Virus record (IMG/VR): IMGVR_UViG_3300046471_000117
Location: 1 to 23,344 of that record
Length of the DNA: 23,344 nt
Reading direction: 5' to 3' (one strand)
Source of the DNA: a virus
The notes beneath the pieces were generated by a model, which was not told where the DNA came from, searched no databases, and saw nothing but the letters and a program-made list of their open reading frames with translations. Shown here one piece after another: positions 16,607 to 23,079 of this stretch. A program made the position numbers and the translations under genes. Each line of letters begins with the position of its first letter. Position 1 is the first letter of the stretch.

Positions 16607-18550
16607 ATGACTGCGCCAGACACCGCCGCGCCCATCATTGCGCCAACCAGCAAGCCTTCATTCGGCGATATCCCGCTCGACTGCATCCGCGCGTCCACCA
16701 CCAACCCCCGCAAGATCTTCGACGAGATCCACCTGCAGGACCTCGCCAACAGCATCAAGACGCAGGGCGTCGCCCAGCCTATCCTGGTGCGCCCCGTCGA
16801 GGTGATCGACGACATCACGTACTTCGAGATCGTCGCCGGCGAGCGCCGCTTCCGCGCGTCCCGCATCGCTGGCATGCCAACCGTGCCGGCAATCGTTCGT
16901 GAACTGTCCGACCGCCAGGCGTACGAAATCCAGGTGCTGGAAAACCTGCAGCGGGTAGACCTGCACCCGCTTGAAGAGGCCGAAGGTTTCGAGGTCATGA
17001 TGGCGACGTACGGCGACACCGCCGACGAGCTGGCCGCGAAGATCGGCAAGAGTCGCGCCTACATCTACGCCAGCCTGAAACTGTGCGCGCTCGAGCCAGC
17101 TGTCCGAAAATTCTTCTACGCCGGCGAACTGACCAAGTCGACTGCTCTGCTCGTCGCACGCATCCCGGTCAAAACATTCCAGATGAAGTGCGCGGAAGAG
17201 ATCACCGGCTCTTACAACGGTGCGATGTCGACGCGCAACGCTGCCGCGCACATCGAGCGCAACTACATGCTGGATTTGAAGAAGGCAGTTTTCAAGCCAT
17301 CCGACGCAGATCTCTATCCTCAGGCCGGTCCGTGCACCACGTGCCCGAAGCGCACCGGCAACCAGCCGGAAATTTTTACCGACGTGAATGCAGACGTCTG
17401 CACTGACTCGATCTGCTTCAAGGCCAAAGAAGGCAGTCACTTCATGCGGATCAAGGCAGTGGCCACGGCAAAAGGTCAGACCGTGCTTAGTGGCGTCGAG
17501 GCCAAAAAGATCATGCCGAATTGGTACGGTGAACTGAAAGGCTATGTCAAGCTGGATGAGACAAATTTCGATGACAAGGACCGCCGTACCTATCGCGAAA
17601 TTCTTGGAAAGAAAAAGCCGTCCGTAGCTCTGCTGGAAAACCCCCACTCGGAGGGATTCATCGAAGTTATCAGCGTGACGGACGTTGCGCCGATTCTAGA
17701 AGAGCTTGGGATCAAGAGCCGCAAGAAGACTGCTGACGACGAAGAAGCCAGCAAGACGCGAGAGAAGGAACTCGCCGCCAAAGGCAGGCTTGAGCAGGAA
17801 TTCCGTCAGCAATTATTCGAAGCCAATCACCATGCCTCGCTGATGATGAACCTCATCGATCCGGACTTGCGCCTGGTGGCCAAGCAGTTATTCAGCCGAC
17901 TGGGCGGCGGCACCATTCCACAGACTACGGTCATGCGTTTGCATGGCTGGGAGAAAGGCGAAAACTACGGCTCGTCCAAGATCAGCGACGCCATCGAAGC
18001 CTTCGAGCCAGCGCAGTTGAACCAATTCATCCGCGACTGCGTACTGTGCGGCGAGCTTGAAACGTATTCGTACACGCCCAATGAGCCCCCGAAAAACCTG
18101 CTTGCGTTCGCCGAGCGCGCCAAGGTCGACGCGAAGGGAATTCGCGCAACGCTGACCGCAGCTGCCAAAGCCAAAGCCGATGCGAAAAAGAAGTCCGCCG
18201 ACAGCAAGGCCGCGAAGGCAGCGAAAGCGCTGGCCACCGCCGAACCGGAATACATTGCGCCGACGCCGGCAGCTCCAATCGCGAAGAAGGCGGCGAAAAC
18301 TGCAGCAGTGCCGGCGAAGAAAACCGCGACTGCGCCGACCAAAAAACCCGTCGTCAAATCCAAGGCAGCAGCCGCAACTGCGCCCGTCGTCGCCGCGACG
18401 CCGGCGGCCGCGATCGAAGAGAAAGGGCCTGCGCGCATCCCTGACGCTGCCAGTTGGCCGTTCCCGACATCGAGCCGACAGTTTGGTCTCGATCCGCAGC
18501 CAGAAACCACCACCCCGCAAATTGAAGCCATCCAGGAGATCGCAGCATGA
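16607..18550 (+). CDS. ParB/Srx-domain protein with cysteine cluster and lysine/alanine-rich tail
   Basis: I start at the ATG at 16607 (MTAPDTAAPIIAPTS), preceded by TTGGAG 6 nt away; the upstream extension overlaps the preceding gene. The product is 647 residues. Residues about 20-115 are a ParB/Srx domain with NPRKIF, QPILVRP and the signature GERRFRA (78-84), the CTP-binding motif of ParB proteins. Residues about 125-165 are the ParB-type helix-turn-helix (ELAAKIGKSRAYIYASLKL). Cys243, Cys246, Cys265 and Cys270 look like a zinc site. Residues about 510-615 are a low-complexity Lys/Ala tail like histone H1, probably binding DNA non-specifically. No ParA is visible in the window. It may act in phage DNA handling after induction rather than in partition. 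It overlaps the next gene by 4 nt. Confidence 0.88.
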   Translation: MTAPDTAAPIIAPTSKPSFGDIPLDCIRASTTNPRKIFDEIHLQDLANSIKTQGVAQPILVRPVEVIDDITYFEIVAGERRFRASRIAGMPTVPAIVRELSDRQAYEIQVLENLQRVDLHPLEEAEGFEVMMATYGDTADELAAKIGKSRAYIYASLKLCALEPAVRKFFYAGELTKSTALLVARIPVKTFQMKCAEEITGSYNGAMSTRNAAAHIERNYMLDLKKAVFKPSDADLYPQAGPCTTCPKRTGNQPEIFTDVNADVCTDSICFKAKEGSHFMRIKAVATAKGQTVLSGVEAKKIMPNWYGELKGYVKLDETNFDDKDRRTYREILGKKKPSVALLENPHSEGFIEVISVTDVAPILEELGIKSRKKTADDEEASKTREKELAAKGRLEQEFRQQLFEANHHASLMMNLIDPDLRLVAKQLFSRLGGGTIPQTTVMRLHGWEKGENYGSSKISDAIEAFEPAQLNQFIRDCVLCGELETYSYTPNEPPKNLLAFAERAKVDAKGIRATLTAAAKAKADAKKKSADSKAAKAAKALATAEPEYIAPTPAAPIAKKAAKTAAVPAKKTATAPTKKPVVKSKAAAATAPVVAATPAAAIEEKGPARIPDAASWPFPTSSRQFGLDPQPETTTPQIEAIQEIAA

Positions 18551-19260
18551 AAACCTTATTCACCGCCATCAAAGCATTCTTCCGCGGCCTGCAGCCGGTT
18601 CTCGTCGGCCCGACAGAGCGGCCGTCCAGCAACTGCGGCAACATCAACGCCCTGCTGTTGCATCTATGCGACTACGACACCGAACTGCACGCGTGGGTGC
18701 TGCGCTGGCTTGCCTACCCGCTGCGCAATCCCGGCGCCAAGATGGCCACGTGCCTGCTCGTCAACGGCGACCAGGGCACCGGCAAGTCGCTCTTCTTCGA
18801 TAACGTCATGTCCGGCATCTACGGCGCCGCCGCCAGGACCGTGGCCCCGCATCGTTTGGAACCGCAGGCCCTACCGGCTTGGACAAATGACGCCCGATTC
18901 GTCATTGTCGACGGCCGCTACTCGGACGCATCGATGGGGCACCTGAAGCACCTAGTCACTGACTCCGCTATCTACGCGGTCGCTGCCAGCAAGCGATCGG
19001 CGACGCTGCAGCCGAATCACATGAACTTTGTATTTTGCACAGGAGAGGTCGATTTCCTGCCAGTCGAGGTGGCCAACCGGCGCTTTGTCGTAATAGAGGC
19101 CCCGCCGCCGCAGCACCGCCGCTTTTACGAGGCCGCCCACTACGAGATCGAGAACGGCGGCGTGGAGGTCTTCCGCGAATATTTGCTCACTCGCCTCGAC
19201 ATGGGCGACTTCAACGCCACCACGGCCCCGCCAGTTGCCCGCGTGCGGAAGGTGGCGTAA
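18547..19260 (+). CDS. Stand-alone DUF5906-type helicase-like protein with altered catalytic motifs
   Basis: A 237-residue protein that aligns with the helicase core of the 911-aa primase-helicase in this same window: RWLAYPLRNPGAKM is shared, then Walker A GDQGTGKS (74-81), MNFVF, and the LDMGDFN end. Key residues differ. The Walker B segment reads FVIVDG, so Gly123 stands where the large protein has Glu671. The sensor-1 segment reads FVFCTGE instead of FVFLSNE, replacing the Asn. The arginine-finger region NRRF is kept. It lacks the Toprim domain and the C-terminal DNA-binding part. It may bind ATP without efficient hydrolysis, acting as a regulator or partner of the replicative helicase. 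It is ATGA-coupled to the ParB-like gene and TAATG-coupled to the next gene. Confidence 0.85.
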   Translation: MKTLFTAIKAFFRGLQPVLVGPTERPSSNCGNINALLLHLCDYDTELHAWVLRWLAYPLRNPGAKMATCLLVNGDQGTGKSLFFDNVMSGIYGAAARTVAPHRLEPQALPAWTNDARFVIVDGRYSDASMGHLKHLVTDSAIYAVAASKRSATLQPNHMNFVFCTGEVDFLPVEVANRRFVVIEAPPPQHRRFYEAAHYEIENGGVEVFREYLLTRLDMGDFNATTAPPVARVRKVA

Positions 19261-19628
19261 TGATGAATGCAATTCCGGAAATGACAGAACCGTTGGGACG
19301 GTACTGGCGCCAACCCGCTGACATCCGCGAAGCGCCAATGGACGACTTGCATGTGCTGCTCACGGCCCAGCAGTTTGATGGTCTGCCAGAGTATTCAAGT
19401 ACCTATCCATCAGGCACCTACGACGGCAAATGCTGGAAACGCCAAGGTGACGTGGAATGGTACTTGTGCTGGTATCGCCCCCACAGCCAGCCCGGGAAAA
19501 TTGGCATTGGGTTTCGAACCATTTTGGAAGTCAATGCGGAAGCCCTGCCATCCGCGGTAGACAACCTTGAGTCGGTGCGCCAAGGACTGCGCCAAGCGCT
19601 CATAGCCGCACGGGAAGCGAAAAAATGA
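19260..19628 (+). CDS. Unknown phage protein (122 aa)
   Basis: The start at 19260 overlaps the previous stop as TAATG, with GGAAGG upstream. The longer frame from 19035 is inside the helicase-like gene. It begins MMNAIPEMTEPLGRYWRQP. Residues about 25-90 look like a compact alpha/beta domain with many aromatics (CWKRQGDVEWYLCWYRPHSQPGK, then GIGFRTILEV). The end is an amphipathic helix (LESVRQGLRQALIAAREAKK). No membrane segment is seen. It is coupled to the following AlpA gene by ATGA. The family is not recognised. As the gene between a helicase-like and an excisionase-type protein, it may serve prophage excision or early lytic functions. Confidence 0.72.
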   Translation: MMNAIPEMTEPLGRYWRQPADIREAPMDDLHVLLTAQQFDGLPEYSSTYPSGTYDGKCWKRQGDVEWYLCWYRPHSQPGKIGIGFRTILEVNAEALPSAVDNLESVRQGLRQALIAAREAKK

Positions 19629-19849
19629 TGAAGCCTCTCTACCTTGAACTGCCAGCCGTCGCCGAGGTCATCGCCCTTGCGCCGGCGACGATCCAGCGCT
19701 GCGTGCGTGAAGGCACCTTCCCAGCGCCGCGCCAGATCTCCGGCCGGCGCGTTGGCTGGCTGGTGCGCGAACTGGAGGAGTGGGCGGAGAGCCGCCCGAA
19801 ATCCGAGCTGCCGCCTCCCAGTAATACTATGCGGCGTACCAACGCGTGA
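19625..19849 (+). CDS. AlpA-family MerR-like regulator / excisionase
   Basis: A 74-residue protein with the short MerR-like winged-helix pattern of AlpA and phage excisionases: LPAVAEVIALAPATIQRCVREGTFPAPRQISGRRVGWLVRELEEWAES in outline. The recognition helix lies at APATIQRCVREG and the wing at RQISGRRVGWLV. AlpA-type proteins activate integrase genes or bend DNA at the attachment site to favour excision. It is the last gene of the operator-controlled rightward operon, so it would be made on induction, exactly when the P4-like integrase further right needs a directionality factor. A bidirectional terminator follows. Family call is firm; excisionase role is inferred from context. Confidence 0.88.
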   Translation: MMKPLYLELPAVAEVIALAPATIQRCVREGTFPAPRQISGRRVGWLVRELEEWAESRPKSELPPPSNTMRRTNA

Positions 19850-19856
19850 CCCAATA

Positions 19857-19886
19857 GAAAAGCCCGCTTAACGCGGGCTTTCTTTA
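19857..19886. terminator. Bidirectional intrinsic terminator
   Basis: A 7-bp stem AGCCCGC / GCGGGCT with a 5-nt loop, with A-tract on the left (AAAA) and T-tract on the right (TTTCTTT). It can end both the rightward operon after the AlpA gene and the leftward Fic cassette, whose last stop is at 19899. Confidence 0.85.
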
Positions 19887-19898
19887 AAAGAAGTTTCT

Positions 19899-20531
19899 TT
19901 AACCGATAATACATTTTAGCAACACTGCGCTTAGCGGCTTTGGGTCGCCCCGACGATGCGCGTAAATCGCACTGTCATAGGGAGGCCGATCATCAAGCTC
20001 CCATTTTGCTGGAATAATATTGACAACGCCCATCATCCTAAGAAAAAGAACTCGGCCAATGTGCCCATTTCCATTTGCATAGGGATGAGTAGTCAGAAAC
20101 CGAACTAACAAGGTACCTAAAATCTCGACAAGCTTAACGAGAAGAACAGCATGGTTCGCGTCAGCTCTGTTAAACATTTTATCGAAATAAACAGCCGCCG
20201 CCAGAAACTGCTTGTCGAACAATGCCATTTCGCGCGGCACAAGTGCTGGGGGCAAGCCAACCTTCGGATCGGACTTAATACCTACTGGGTAAATTTTCAG
20301 CACATCAAAATTACTGCCTCGATAATTTCCAGCATAAAAAGGAAAATGTCTGGGCGTAAACTGCCGAAAAATATACTTGTGAGCCAAACAAGTTGTCTTG
20401 CATCGGGGTGAATCGAATTCTTTTGGCAACTCAAGCAATGCAGCGCCTAACCGGACACATCGATCTCTTAAAACTTTCCGTTGGGGATGAGTATCATATT
20501 CCCAATTCATCGGGTTATCGTGATATCTCAT
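19899..20531 (-). CDS. Fic-domain protein with variant motif HPYANGNGHIGR
   Basis: A 210-residue protein, last gene of a three-gene leftward cassette. The Fic core has catalytic His149 in HPYANGNGHIGR (149-160). The canonical motif is HPFx(D/E)GNGRxxR, so here Asn153 replaces the acidic metal ligand and His157 replaces the first Arg, while His149, GNG and Arg160 are kept. Upstream FYAGNYRGSNF (about 65-75) is the typical Fic flap-side segment. Fic proteins transfer AMP or other nucleotide groups to protein hydroxyls. The altered residues suggest changed chemistry or cofactor use. No obvious (S/T)xxxE(G/N) inhibitory helix is visible in the protein. The first ATG (20531) lies 6 nt after the previous stop and has only a poor ribosome binding site; Met8 is an alternative. 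AT-richer than the phage genes. Confidence 0.85.
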   Translation of the reverse strand: MRYHDNPMNWEYDTHPQRKVLRDRCVRLGAALLELPKEFDSPRCKTTCLAHKYIFRQFTPRHFPFYAGNYRGSNFDVLKIYPVGIKSDPKVGLPPALVPREMALFDKQFLAAAVYFDKMFNRADANHAVLLVKLVEILGTLLVRFLTTHPYANGNGHIGRVLFLRMMGVVNIIPAKWELDDRPPYDSAIYAHRRGDPKPLSAVLLKCIIG

Positions 20532-20537
20532 CCTAAC

Positions 20538-20957
20538 TTATGCATACCTCGGAAAAAACGCTTCAGCGATCTCCAATGGTGTCCGGGAACTACGCTGCTT
20601 TGATGCCGTTAGCGCCTGCTGGGCTAGCGCAAGCAAATCCTGGTCGATAGATGCCTCCGTAACATCCGGCAACTTCATCAACTCACTATCAACACTGGCA
20701 GCCATTCTTTGCAATTCTTGATGCAGAGAAGCGCTTTCAGAAAATTGGACATTTGGTGATGAAAAAGAATCAGCTGCAGCGGTCGCGGGAACAGAAATTG
20801 CTGACGCTGCAATGAATGTAGTTGCAACGGCAATATCAGTGGCGGCCTTCTTTATGGTGCTTTTAACTTTCTCGCCAACTTCAGCCCAGCCGATAAGAAA
20901 ACAATCATCCATCCAGGCACCGATTCTGAAATCGTCAAAACCTATAAAGCTACTCAT
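20538..20957 (-). CDS. Unknown 139-aa protein with hydrophobic segment, middle gene of Fic cassette
   Basis: Start at the ATG at 20957 (MSSFIGFDDFRIGAWMDDCF), with AGGAGAGAG upstream; it overlaps the end of the previous gene by 8 nt. The longer frame to 21017 is a shadow of the upstream gene. Residues about 30-45 are charged (EVGEKVKSTIKKAATD), followed by a hydrophobic Ala/Ile/Val stretch of about 20 residues (IAVATTFIAASAISVPATAAA). That stretch looks like a signal anchor or a signal peptide with an extended N-region and an AxA-type end. The remaining about 75 residues are polar and helical (LHQELQRMAASVDSELMKLP, then IDQDLLALAQQAL). It may anchor the cassette product at the membrane or be exported. 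No family recognised. Confidence 0.7.
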   Translation of the reverse strand: MSSFIGFDDFRIGAWMDDCFLIGWAEVGEKVKSTIKKAATDIAVATTFIAASAISVPATAAADSFSSPNVQFSESASLHQELQRMAASVDSELMKLPDVTEASIDQDLLALAQQALTASKQRSSRTPLEIAEAFFPRYA

Positions 20958-21633
20958 TACTCTCTCCTTCTTCTTGAATTTTTTTAGAAAAACCAATAAT
21001 AGTACGAGCAAAAGCAAGGAATAACGAAGTCCGCAAATCTACGCGCACGACTGGCTCGACCTCCAACTCGGTTTCACGCTCTGCCTTCCTGACGGCGAAG
21101 GCCGAAGCATGATAGAAATCCATACAAGCCTCTTGACCAGCAATCGCAACTGAGCAAATATTGGCTACCATATTGACTGTTTGAACAGGCTTTGAAGGGA
21201 TATTAGAAATTTCTTCATTGCGGCATTTCCAAGAAGAACTCATGCCATCAGTATTCTCGTCCAAACCAAGGTCAAGCAAACTGTTGGAAAAGCTTACAGT
21301 CGCATCTGGATTCATCCTGATCAGGATTGCAGAATCTACATCAGACTCGTCAAATCCCTGTTGAGCAAACATGATTCTAATTTCACCATGTAAATATCTA
21401 ACTTGGCACAAATCCGCTGCATATCGCCTTTGAGGAACTGGCACCTGCTGCATGTCCATTCCATACCTCCCGCTTTCTGGAGACGTGTTGGTAAGCGGAT
21501 TTAATGTAACCGCATACCCTTCGCGACGCGAACTCGTTTTTTCAGGTGCAATCGTCTTATTCATGAGCCCTTGCAGCAGACCCGACTGCGACGCTACATC
21601 GCTACGGCCACCCTTACCTCTTCCTCTAGACAT
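20950..21633 (-). CDS. Unknown 227-aa protein, first gene of Fic cassette
   Basis: The ATG at 21633 is preceded by AGAAA and by a long AT-rich stretch that should hold the cassette promoter. The N-terminus (MSRGRGKGGRSDVASQSGL) is basic and Gly/Ser rich, probably disordered. Residues about 72-125 (ADLCQVRYLHGEIRIMFAQQGFD, AILIRMNPDATVSFSNSLLDLG) form a beta-rich pattern that recalls DUF3467-type small domains, a weak resemblance only. Residues about 150-205 (VNMVANICSVAIAGQEACMDFYHASAF, then VRVDLRTSLFLAFARTIIGFSKK) repeat a strand-plus-helix theme, so the protein may have two related halves. Its base composition is unlike the high-GC phage genes, suggesting separate acquisition. Function unknown. 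Confidence 0.72.
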   Translation of the reverse strand: MSRGRGKGGRSDVASQSGLLQGLMNKTIAPEKTSSRREGYAVTLNPLTNTSPESGRYGMDMQQVPVPQRRYAADLCQVRYLHGEIRIMFAQQGFDESDVDSAILIRMNPDATVSFSNSLLDLGLDENTDGMSSSWKCRNEEISNIPSKPVQTVNMVANICSVAIAGQEACMDFYHASAFAVRKAERETELEVEPVVRVDLRTSLFLAFARTIIGFSKKIQEEGESNE

Positions 21634-21786: not shown

Positions 21787-23079
21787 TCAATCCTTAGACA
21801 AAGTTTCATACTGATCACTAAGCTTTTTCAGCCACTCCCACCGCTCAGTATCGTACCGATGTAGATTGTACACTCCCACTATCCCCTCTTTCATGTGACC
21901 CAATATCGCTTCGCCGACCTCGTCCGGGCATCCCATCGACGCCAGCAAGGTGCGTGAACTACGCCGCAGATCGTGTGGTGCCCAAAGCGGGATTTCATCT
22001 GGATAGCGCGAGCGCGGATAGTCCGACCTGGTTACGCAGTCACGCCGGCGCATCCATACCGCACACCCGATGGTCTTCTGCTCGATATGACCGAGCGCGC
22101 GGCTATTCGGGAACAAAAACGAACCCGGCTCCGACTGGAGGCGCCGTCGTACGACGACCGCAGCGCGACCGAATAGAGGCACGCGCAGATCGGTTGCCAA
22201 TTCATGACGGGCGTTCTTTGTCTTGTGCTTCGGTATCGTCCACCATAGCCCGTTTTCTTCCTCGGTAATCTCGGCACGCTCCATCGCGACGATTTCCGAA
22301 CCGCGGCAGCATGTCCACATATACAGGGTTAATGCATCCTCGATCCGTGCGGTGAAGTTCGGCAGCCATCGAACCAACGCGCCCAACTCTTTCGCAACGA
22401 GAAAGCGCTTGCCTGGTCCAGCGTGCACACCCTTGATTACCTTGCCCTTCGATCGAAGCTTGCCGCGCATGATCAACCGCCACCAGTTGGGCGCGCTCTC
22501 GGGAAGACGGCCCGAATCCAGGCCGTAATCCCATGCAGCGCCAAGTTCGCAGCGTATCCGGCCGCACTGCACCGGGATATGTATGTATTGCTCGAGCAGA
22601 TCAAATGCCGCCGACCTGGTCACGTCCTGCGCCGGTAAGTCGCCGAAGTCGCCCAGCATCGTGTCGAACATACGCAATACTTCCGCAGCACCTTTCGCTT
22701 TGCGCGCATGAACAACCCGACCCTCGTAATAGTATTGGCACAGCCGGCGTACGGTAAGTTTGACGACCTTGGCTCGTTCGCGCTTTTCGACGGCGACAGC
22801 ACGCACGTCGGCAGCCGCTTGTTTCTTCACCGCGGCTGGGTCGACGCCGGCGCTGCGCGCGGTGCGCAGCTTTTCCCAGGCGGCGATTGCAGCCGATATC
22901 GACATGGCTGGCCAGTCCCCAATTTTCGACTGGCGCATCTTGCCGTCGACTGGACTTTTATAGCGGTAGACCCATGACTTGGTCGACACAGTAGCCTTCA
23001 GGCGCAGCCCAGGGCAATCATCAATGGTAAAGTGCTGACCTGCTTCCAACAGCTTCGCGGTGCGCGCATCGAACGGCAT
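21787..23079 (-). CDS. P4-like tyrosine recombinase integrase
   Basis: A 430-residue integrase that inserts and excises the prophage. Residues about 15-65 are the arm-binding DUF4102-like domain (DCPGLRLKATVSTKSWVYRYK, IGDWPAMSISAA). Residues about 105-205 are the core-binding domain. The catalytic domain shows Arg259 (CCRGSE), a Lys in KHKTK (284-288), His369-x2-Arg372 (HDLRRS), His395 (LGHMKEG) and the nucleophile Tyr404 (VYNLHRY), a complete set. An AGAGGAA ribosome binding site precedes the ATG at 23079. It reads inward from the right edge, so the attachment site is expected upstream of its start, where repeated GCGTAAC sites occur. P4-like integrases usually target tRNA genes, but no tRNA is seen before the window ends. 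Confidence 0.95.
   Translation of the reverse strand: MPFDARTAKLLEAGQHFTIDDCPGLRLKATVSTKSWVYRYKSPVDGKMRQSKIGDWPAMSISAAIAAWEKLRTARSAGVDPAAVKKQAAADVRAVAVEKRERAKVVKLTVRRLCQYYYEGRVVHARKAKGAAEVLRMFDTMLGDFGDLPAQDVTRSAAFDLLEQYIHIPVQCGRIRCELGAAWDYGLDSGRLPESAPNWWRLIMRGKLRSKGKVIKGVHAGPGKRFLVAKELGALVRWLPNFTARIEDALTLYMWTCCRGSEIVAMERAEITEEENGLWWTIPKHKTKNARHELATDLRVPLFGRAAVVVRRRLQSEPGSFLFPNSRALGHIEQKTIGCAVWMRRRDCVTRSDYPRSRYPDEIPLWAPHDLRRSSRTLLASMGCPDEVGEAILGHMKEGIVGVYNLHRYDTERWEWLKKLSDQYETLSKD

What the first reader, a model, noticed from the sequence alone, without database searches (positions are those of the whole stretch)
19899..21633. Three-gene Fic cassette as uncharacterised prophage cargo
A leftward, AT-richer cassette with overlapping or tightly spaced genes (227-aa unknown, 139-aa with a hydrophobic segment, Fic protein) lies between the excisionase operon and the integrase, a classic cargo position. 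The Fic enzyme would modify a protein; the two unknown partners could be antitoxin, sensor or membrane adaptor. I know of no described system with this exact composition. A defence, toxin-antitoxin or conversion role is inference.
Basis: partly seen in the sequence, partly recalled or inferred. Interest (0 to 1): 0.7.

Follow-up and report, generated by a model that had tools for sequence, protein, structure and literature searches.

The report
Modular three-gene Fic toxin cassette
Next to its integrase this prophage carries three genes that recur together across bacteria and look like a toxin, its antidote and an antidote-specific helper that can be swapped like building blocks, probably a phage-defence switch that nobody seems to have described.

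Summary
In detail: three leftward genes (227 aa, 139 aa with a hydrophobic segment, Fic 210 aa; GC about 0.45 against about 0.60 nearby) lie between alpA and the integrase. The trio recurs in a sister prophage (L062), Massilia, two Paraburkholderia and Cupriavidus. In 22 sister prophages the int-alpA site is empty (12), holds this cassette (1) or other cargo (9), including NACHT, HEPN/Toprim and 1TM-TIR-like genes: a cargo and probably defence hotspot. A wider Fic family from five phyla (HPYANGNGHxxR in place of HxFx[D/E]GNGRxxR) almost always has a short gene upstream whose C-terminus follows the Fic. Gene 1 is exchanged among at least five unrelated types. Conversely, the same gene 1 and middle-protein N-terminus occur with two non-Fic third genes. 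So the middle protein looks like an adaptor-antitoxin: N-terminus read by gene 1, C-terminus by the effector. Best reading: a TAC-like tripartite toxin-antitoxin module with a Fic effector and a dedicated, non-SecB helper or sensor. Toxicity, neutralisation and defence are inferred, not shown. I found no description in the papers searched.

The parts
20950..21633 (-). Gene 1 (227 aa): proposed dedicated chaperone/sensor; family A of the first genes
   Evidence: No significant Pfam, PADLOC, NCBIfam or PDB sequence match; homologues at 25-35% in L062, L019, L032, L033, L034, L063, L067, L068; AF2 pLDDT 84, two beta-rich units each followed by helix
20538..20957 (-). Middle gene (139 aa): proposed modular antitoxin/adaptor
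   Evidence: N-terminus shared with all relatives that have the same gene 1 family, C-terminus shared with relatives that have a Fic
20898..20957 (-). Middle protein residues 1-20, FxxFxVxAW-like motif that tracks gene 1
   Evidence: Invariant F, F, A, W in 8 aligned relatives; HMM 22-33 bits on middles with the same gene 1 but another effector, at most -1.9 on all others
20778..20834 (-). Hydrophobic, signal-peptide-like segment of the middle protein (residues 42-60)
   Evidence: KD19 1.68; 1.43-2.06 at the equivalent place in 7 of 8 family-A relatives (absent in L067); also visible in L110
20541..20654 (-). Middle protein C-terminal segment (residues 102-139), proposed Fic-binding part; degenerate here (no Trp)
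   Evidence: C-terminal HMM 8.6 bits here, 20-28.5 in L062, L032, L033, L034; best of 550 shuffles 9.4
19899..20531 (-). Fic-fold protein (210 aa), proposed toxin/effector
   Evidence: PF02661; AF2 pLDDT 89, Foldseek probability 1.00 to FICD, EcFicT, BepC and others
20052..20087 (-). Fic motif HPYANGNGHIGR (residues 149-160)
   Evidence: H, P, GNG, H and R invariant in 28 aligned relatives; N replaces the Mg-binding D/E, H replaces R1, R2 kept
19859..19881 (.). GC-rich stem, probable shared terminator between the cassette and the convergent alpA gene
   Evidence: fold z = -3.1
19625..19849 (+). AlpA excisionase-like gene, left border of the cargo site
   Evidence: PF05930 6e-10; border conserved in 22 sister prophages
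21787..23079 (-). Tyrosine integrase, right border of the cargo site
   Evidence: PF13356, PF00589; 46-62% identical integrases in 22 sister prophages

Best explanation
A tripartite toxin-antitoxin-helper module carried as cargo in a prophage defence hotspot. The Fic protein is the toxin and modifies a host or phage protein. The middle protein is its antitoxin: its C-terminal helices bind and silence Fic, while its N-terminal FxxFxVxAW motif plus hydrophobic segment make it depend on gene 1, a dedicated chaperone/sensor that keeps it folded, soluble or in the cytosol. When infection titrates or disables gene 1, the antitoxin is lost and Fic is released, stopping growth and phage production. 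Shown: the gene set, its conservation, the two-way modularity, the Fic fold, the cargo site. Inferred: toxicity, neutralisation, dependence on gene 1, the trigger, defence.
For: (1) Same trio in six elements. (2) Two-way modularity: an HMM of the middle C-termini from loci with other first genes finds the C-termini of four of the six gene-1-A/Fic middles at 20-28.5 bits (window 8.6, L019 3.3) but not gene-1-A/non-Fic middles (at most -3.6); an HMM of the gene-1-A/Fic N-termini finds gene-1-A/non-Fic N-termini (22-33 bits) and nothing else. (3) Gene 1 is exchanged: families A, B (TIGR04255), C, D, E show no sequence relation, and closely related Fic proteins L032 and L035 (97/90 support) carry families A and D. 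(4) The effector is exchanged: L063-L066, L068 and L110 have a 180-189 aa 'SHDC' protein in the Fic place, L067 another. (5) Hotspot shared with NACHT, HEPN/Toprim and 1TM-TIR-like genes. (6) No in-cis inhibitory [S/T]xxxE[G/N] motif is conserved in the Fic family, so silencing should come from a partner. (7) TAC precedent: an antitoxin with a toxin-binding part and a transferable, chaperone-read segment (PMC5105189, PMC6377645), released by phage capsid protein in CmdTAC (PMC11618068).
Against: No experiment. Gene 1 is not SecB-like by sequence and SecB is not among the 50 structural matches listed. The window's own middle C-terminus is degenerate (8.6 bits, below the best shuffle). Some Fic relatives have no identifiable gene 1 (L020, L025, L027), and L008 has no middle gene. 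The Fic motif lacks the Mg-binding acid and R1, so its chemistry is uncertain. The Panacea gene beside L008's Fic is convergent, not in an operon with it.
Confidence: 0.55

Rival explanations
1. A two-part Fic toxin-antitoxin pair (middle + Fic), with gene 1 a transcriptional regulator or nucleic-acid sensor rather than a chaperone.
For: Gene 1's best, though insignificant, structural match is Pur-alpha repeats I-II, a nucleic-acid-binding fold (E = 0.015); several Fic relatives have the middle gene but no visible gene 1.
Against: The middle N-terminus follows gene 1 in loci with three different effectors, which points to a protein contact rather than mere regulation. TM-scores to Pur-alpha are only 0.2-0.3.
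Confidence: 0.2
2. A membrane- or export-linked switch: the middle protein is a single-span or exported protein that anchors or removes the partner, and gene 1 keeps it in the cytosol.
For: Hydrophobic segments of KD 1.4-2.1, usually after a basic stretch and often followed by A-x-A, in most gene-1-A middles, e.g. L110 ...LTTVAVAEPAP.
Against: L067 and the middles of several other types (L006, L023, L029, L031, L035) lack a strong one; an exported C-terminus could not bind a cytosolic Fic.
Confidence: 0.15
3. Lysogenic-conversion or prophage-maintenance genes in which Fic is a regulator or inactive enzyme, not a toxin.
For: Departures from the canonical Fic motif (N for D/E, H for R1), compare EcFicT, which lacks R1 and shows no AMPylation (PMC5033356).
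Against: H149, GNG and R2 are invariant across 28 relatives, which a dead enzyme would not need; hotspot company is defence-like; the modular swapping resembles TA systems.
Confidence: 0.1

Closest known systems
Toxin-antitoxin-chaperone systems (Mtb-TAC, CmdTAC)
   Same: Three-gene operon; antitoxin with one part for the toxin and one short, transferable part read by a dedicated partner; different toxins on one chassis; CmdTAC is anti-phage
   Different: No SecB homologue; the partner-read part is N-terminal, not a C-terminal ChAD; order is partner-antitoxin-toxin; the toxin is Fic
Class I FicTA modules (VbhTA, EcFicTA, Fic-1/AntF)
   Same: Small upstream gene plus Fic-fold protein
   Different: No [S/T]xxxE[G/N] motif in the middle protein; Fic motif HPYANGNGHxxR; an extra gene 1 paired with the small gene
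SoFic with AS1 (anti-phage Fic, PMC12249575)
   Same: Fic fold; defence-linked; small partner protein
   Different: SoFic has a C-terminal domain and a downstream antitoxin; SoFic and PDC-S04 PADLOC models match only the Fic core, weakly
PanAT (Panacea antitoxin with Fic/Doc toxins, PMC8832971)
   Same: Modular pairing of an antitoxin with many toxins, Fic included; a Panacea gene lies beside one relative (L008)
   Different: No Panacea domain in this cassette

Membership tests
Fic/DOC protein fold | Match to PF02661 and the Fic fold | tested here: met
   24 of 24 relatives match (window itself 23.1 bits against cut-off 24); Foldseek probability 1.00
Canonical AMPylating Fic | HxFx[D/E]GNGR1xxR2 | tested here: not met
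   HPYANGNGHIGR; acid replaced by N in 25 of 26 family members (D in L010) and R1 by H in all, R2 kept
Class I FicTA | Separate antitoxin with [S/T]xxxE[G/N] facing R2 | tested here: not met
   Absent from the window middle protein and not conserved in any group
Class II/III Fic | [S/T]xxxE[G/N] helix in the Fic chain itself | tested here: not met
   None in the window Fic; scattered in 3 of 26 family members
TAC | SecB-like chaperone gene | tested here: not met
   hhalign to SecB probability 0.2% (only two SecB sequences used); no SecB Pfam match; not in the 50 Foldseek rows listed
TAC | Antitoxin with a C-terminal chaperone-addiction segment | tested here: not met
   The gene-1-tracking segment is N-terminal
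TAC | Neutralisation of the toxin requires the third protein | not testable with these tools
   Needs expression experiments
PanAT | Panacea domain (PF13274) in the antitoxin | tested here: not met
   Middle protein has no Pfam match

The most novel reading that the evidence does not exclude
A new class of tripartite defence switch whose antitoxin carries a built-in export or membrane segment: gene 1 normally holds it in the cytosol on the toxin, and loss of gene 1 sends the antitoxin to the membrane, freeing one of several interchangeable effectors.
Probability: 0.15. Interest if true: 0.85.

Novelty: new variant of a known kind. Interest (0 to 1): 0.64.

Why it matters
It would extend the toxin-antitoxin-chaperone logic beyond SecB to several unrelated helper families, give Fic toxins a new kind of antitoxin and a new motif variant, and define a combinatorial toolkit (swappable helper, adaptor and effector) in prophage cargo sites, with an unstudied 'SHDC' effector family as a bonus.

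Tried and rejected
Close-relative scans with the single 227-, 139- and 210-aa proteins found nothing in viral contigs, phages or genomes; plasmids gave only distant Fic hits without the cassette; alignments were needed. SecB homology of gene 1 was tested and rejected by sequence. A VbhA-type antitoxin was tested and rejected. Gene 1 against PDB and viral models gave no confident fold relative; Pur-alpha is only a lead. The Azospirillum and sphingomonad plasmid Fic relatives have other neighbours and serve as outgroups. A survey of 399 Burkholderiales genomes showed the cassette is rare (gene 1 in one genome, already known). No paper was found on TIGR04255 or on a Fic tripartite module.

Full report
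Observation. The first two overlap by 8 bp and the last two are 6 bp apart; all are AT-richer than the rest. The window is the whole of one IMG/VR record of 23,344 bp, which may be a fragment. Left of the cassette is a convergent alpA gene, with a GC stem between them; right of it, on the same strand, the integrase.

What the parts are. Only Fic has a family match, just under the Pfam cut-off (23.1 of 24 bits). Its relatives settle the matter: 24 of 24 match PF02661 and the AlphaFold2 model (pLDDT 89) is matched to FICD, EcFicT, BepC and others at probability 1.00. The motif is HPYANGNGHIGR. The acid that holds Mg in HxFx[D/E]GNGR1xxR2 is N, R1 is H and R2 is kept; H, GNG, H and R2 are invariant in 28 relatives (motif roles from PMC5033356). 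Gene 1 has no significant sequence match in the libraries. Its model (pLDDT 84) shows two beta-rich units each followed by helix, and Foldseek gives nothing below E = 0.001, Pur-alpha being the first row at E = 0.015.

Conservation. Scans with Fic alignments and a gene 1 alignment found the exact trio in L062 (a sister prophage), L019 (Massilia, next to a broken integrase of the same kind), L032 and L033 (Paraburkholderia) and L034 (Cupriavidus pauculus). The wider Fic family spans Pseudomonadota, Planctomycetota, Cyanobacteriota, Acidobacteriota and Saccharibacteria, and a short gene ending in a D-x-W-A-x-x-L-like C-terminus precedes nearly all members. It is rare: one of 399 Burkholderiales genomes has gene 1, and the deposited phage and plasmid collections gave no gene 1 match.

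Modularity, the main new result. Gene 1 differs between loci: family A (window type, with distant A2), TIGR04255 (family B), and families C, D and E, which show no sequence relation to one another. On the Fic tree, sister Fic proteins L032 and L035 (97/90) carry families A and D. In the other direction, gene 1 A with a middle gene of the same N-terminus occurs with a different third gene: an 'SHDC' protein in L063-L066, L068 and L110 and another protein in L067. Profile tests make this quantitative. A C-terminal model from middles with other first genes scores 20.0, 23.4, 24.0 and 28.5 bits on L062, L032, L033 and L034, 8.6 on the window and 3.3 on L019, but -4.2, -3.6 and nothing on the three non-Fic cassettes (best of 550 shuffles 9.4). 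An N-terminal model from the family A/Fic middles scores 32.9, 32.7 and 22.5 on the non-Fic cassettes and at most -1.9 on every other middle (best of 660 shuffles 7.2). So the N-terminus follows gene 1 and the C-terminus follows the effector. For the window itself the C-terminal match is marginal, and the test would not stand on it alone.

Cargo site. Twenty-two sister prophages share the integrase at 46-62% identity. Between integrase and alpA, 12 have 2-76 bp; the window and L094 (same contig as L062) have the cassette; the other 9 have other insertions, among them a NACHT protein (L080), a HEPN/Toprim protein (L078), a 1TM-TIR-like protein (L081), DUF5677 (L095) and a reverse transcriptase with an Lcl_C protein (L085). 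The trio thus sits as a unit in a site used by defence-like genes.

Mechanism. A Fic toxin without a conserved in-cis inhibitory motif needs a partner; the middle protein, upstream and co-varying with Fic at its C-terminus, is the natural antitoxin, though it lacks the VbhA-type motif. Its other half is read by gene 1. This is the logic of TAC systems, where a transferable segment makes the antitoxin depend on a chaperone (PMC5105189, PMC6377645) and where phage capsid protein can pull the chaperone away (PMC11618068). Gene 1 is not SecB, and the segment is N-terminal, so this is TAC-like, not TAC. The hydrophobic, signal-peptide-like segment in most family A middles suggests aggregation or export as the route by which the antitoxin is lost; this is inference. 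Toxicity, neutralisation, trigger and defence are all untested.

Novelty. No paper in the library searched describes a Fic tripartite module or TIGR04255, with the limit that most subscription papers and all bioRxiv preprints are missing. I file it as a new variant of a known kind.

Noticed in passing
L063:5897-6451, L068:5908-6477, L110:5604-6146: An unnamed effector family (180-189 aa, motif V-V-S-H-D-C or a relaxed form) takes the Fic place behind the same gene 1 and middle N-terminus; the middle C-terminus then reads roughly YW...(8)..M(R/K)SWE.LPEP.
   Followed up: partly
L076-L097, between integrase and alpA: A variable cargo hotspot in this prophage family, with NACHT (L080), HEPN/Toprim (L078), 1TM-TIR-like (L081), DUF5677 (L095), serine recombinases (L083) and unknown genes (L079, L084, L093); 12 of 22 are empty.
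   Followed up: partly
L085:1573-4616: A reverse transcriptase with two Lcl_C-type proteins, probably a diversity-generating retroelement, in the same cargo site.
   Followed up: no
L008:4962-6260: A Fic relative without a middle gene lies 6 bp from a convergent Panacea-domain gene (PF13274, 1.8e-19), a known antitoxin domain.
   Followed up: partly
window 18547-19260: A VapE/primase-like ORF of only 237 aa that matches the C-terminal half of much longer phage primases and overlaps the end of the ParB-like gene; perhaps a truncated replication protein.
   Followed up: no
L067:4977-6791: Gene 1 A with a middle protein that lacks the hydrophobic segment and carries a folded-looking C-terminal domain, plus a third unknown 192-aa gene, in a prophage between tail genes.
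   Followed up: partly
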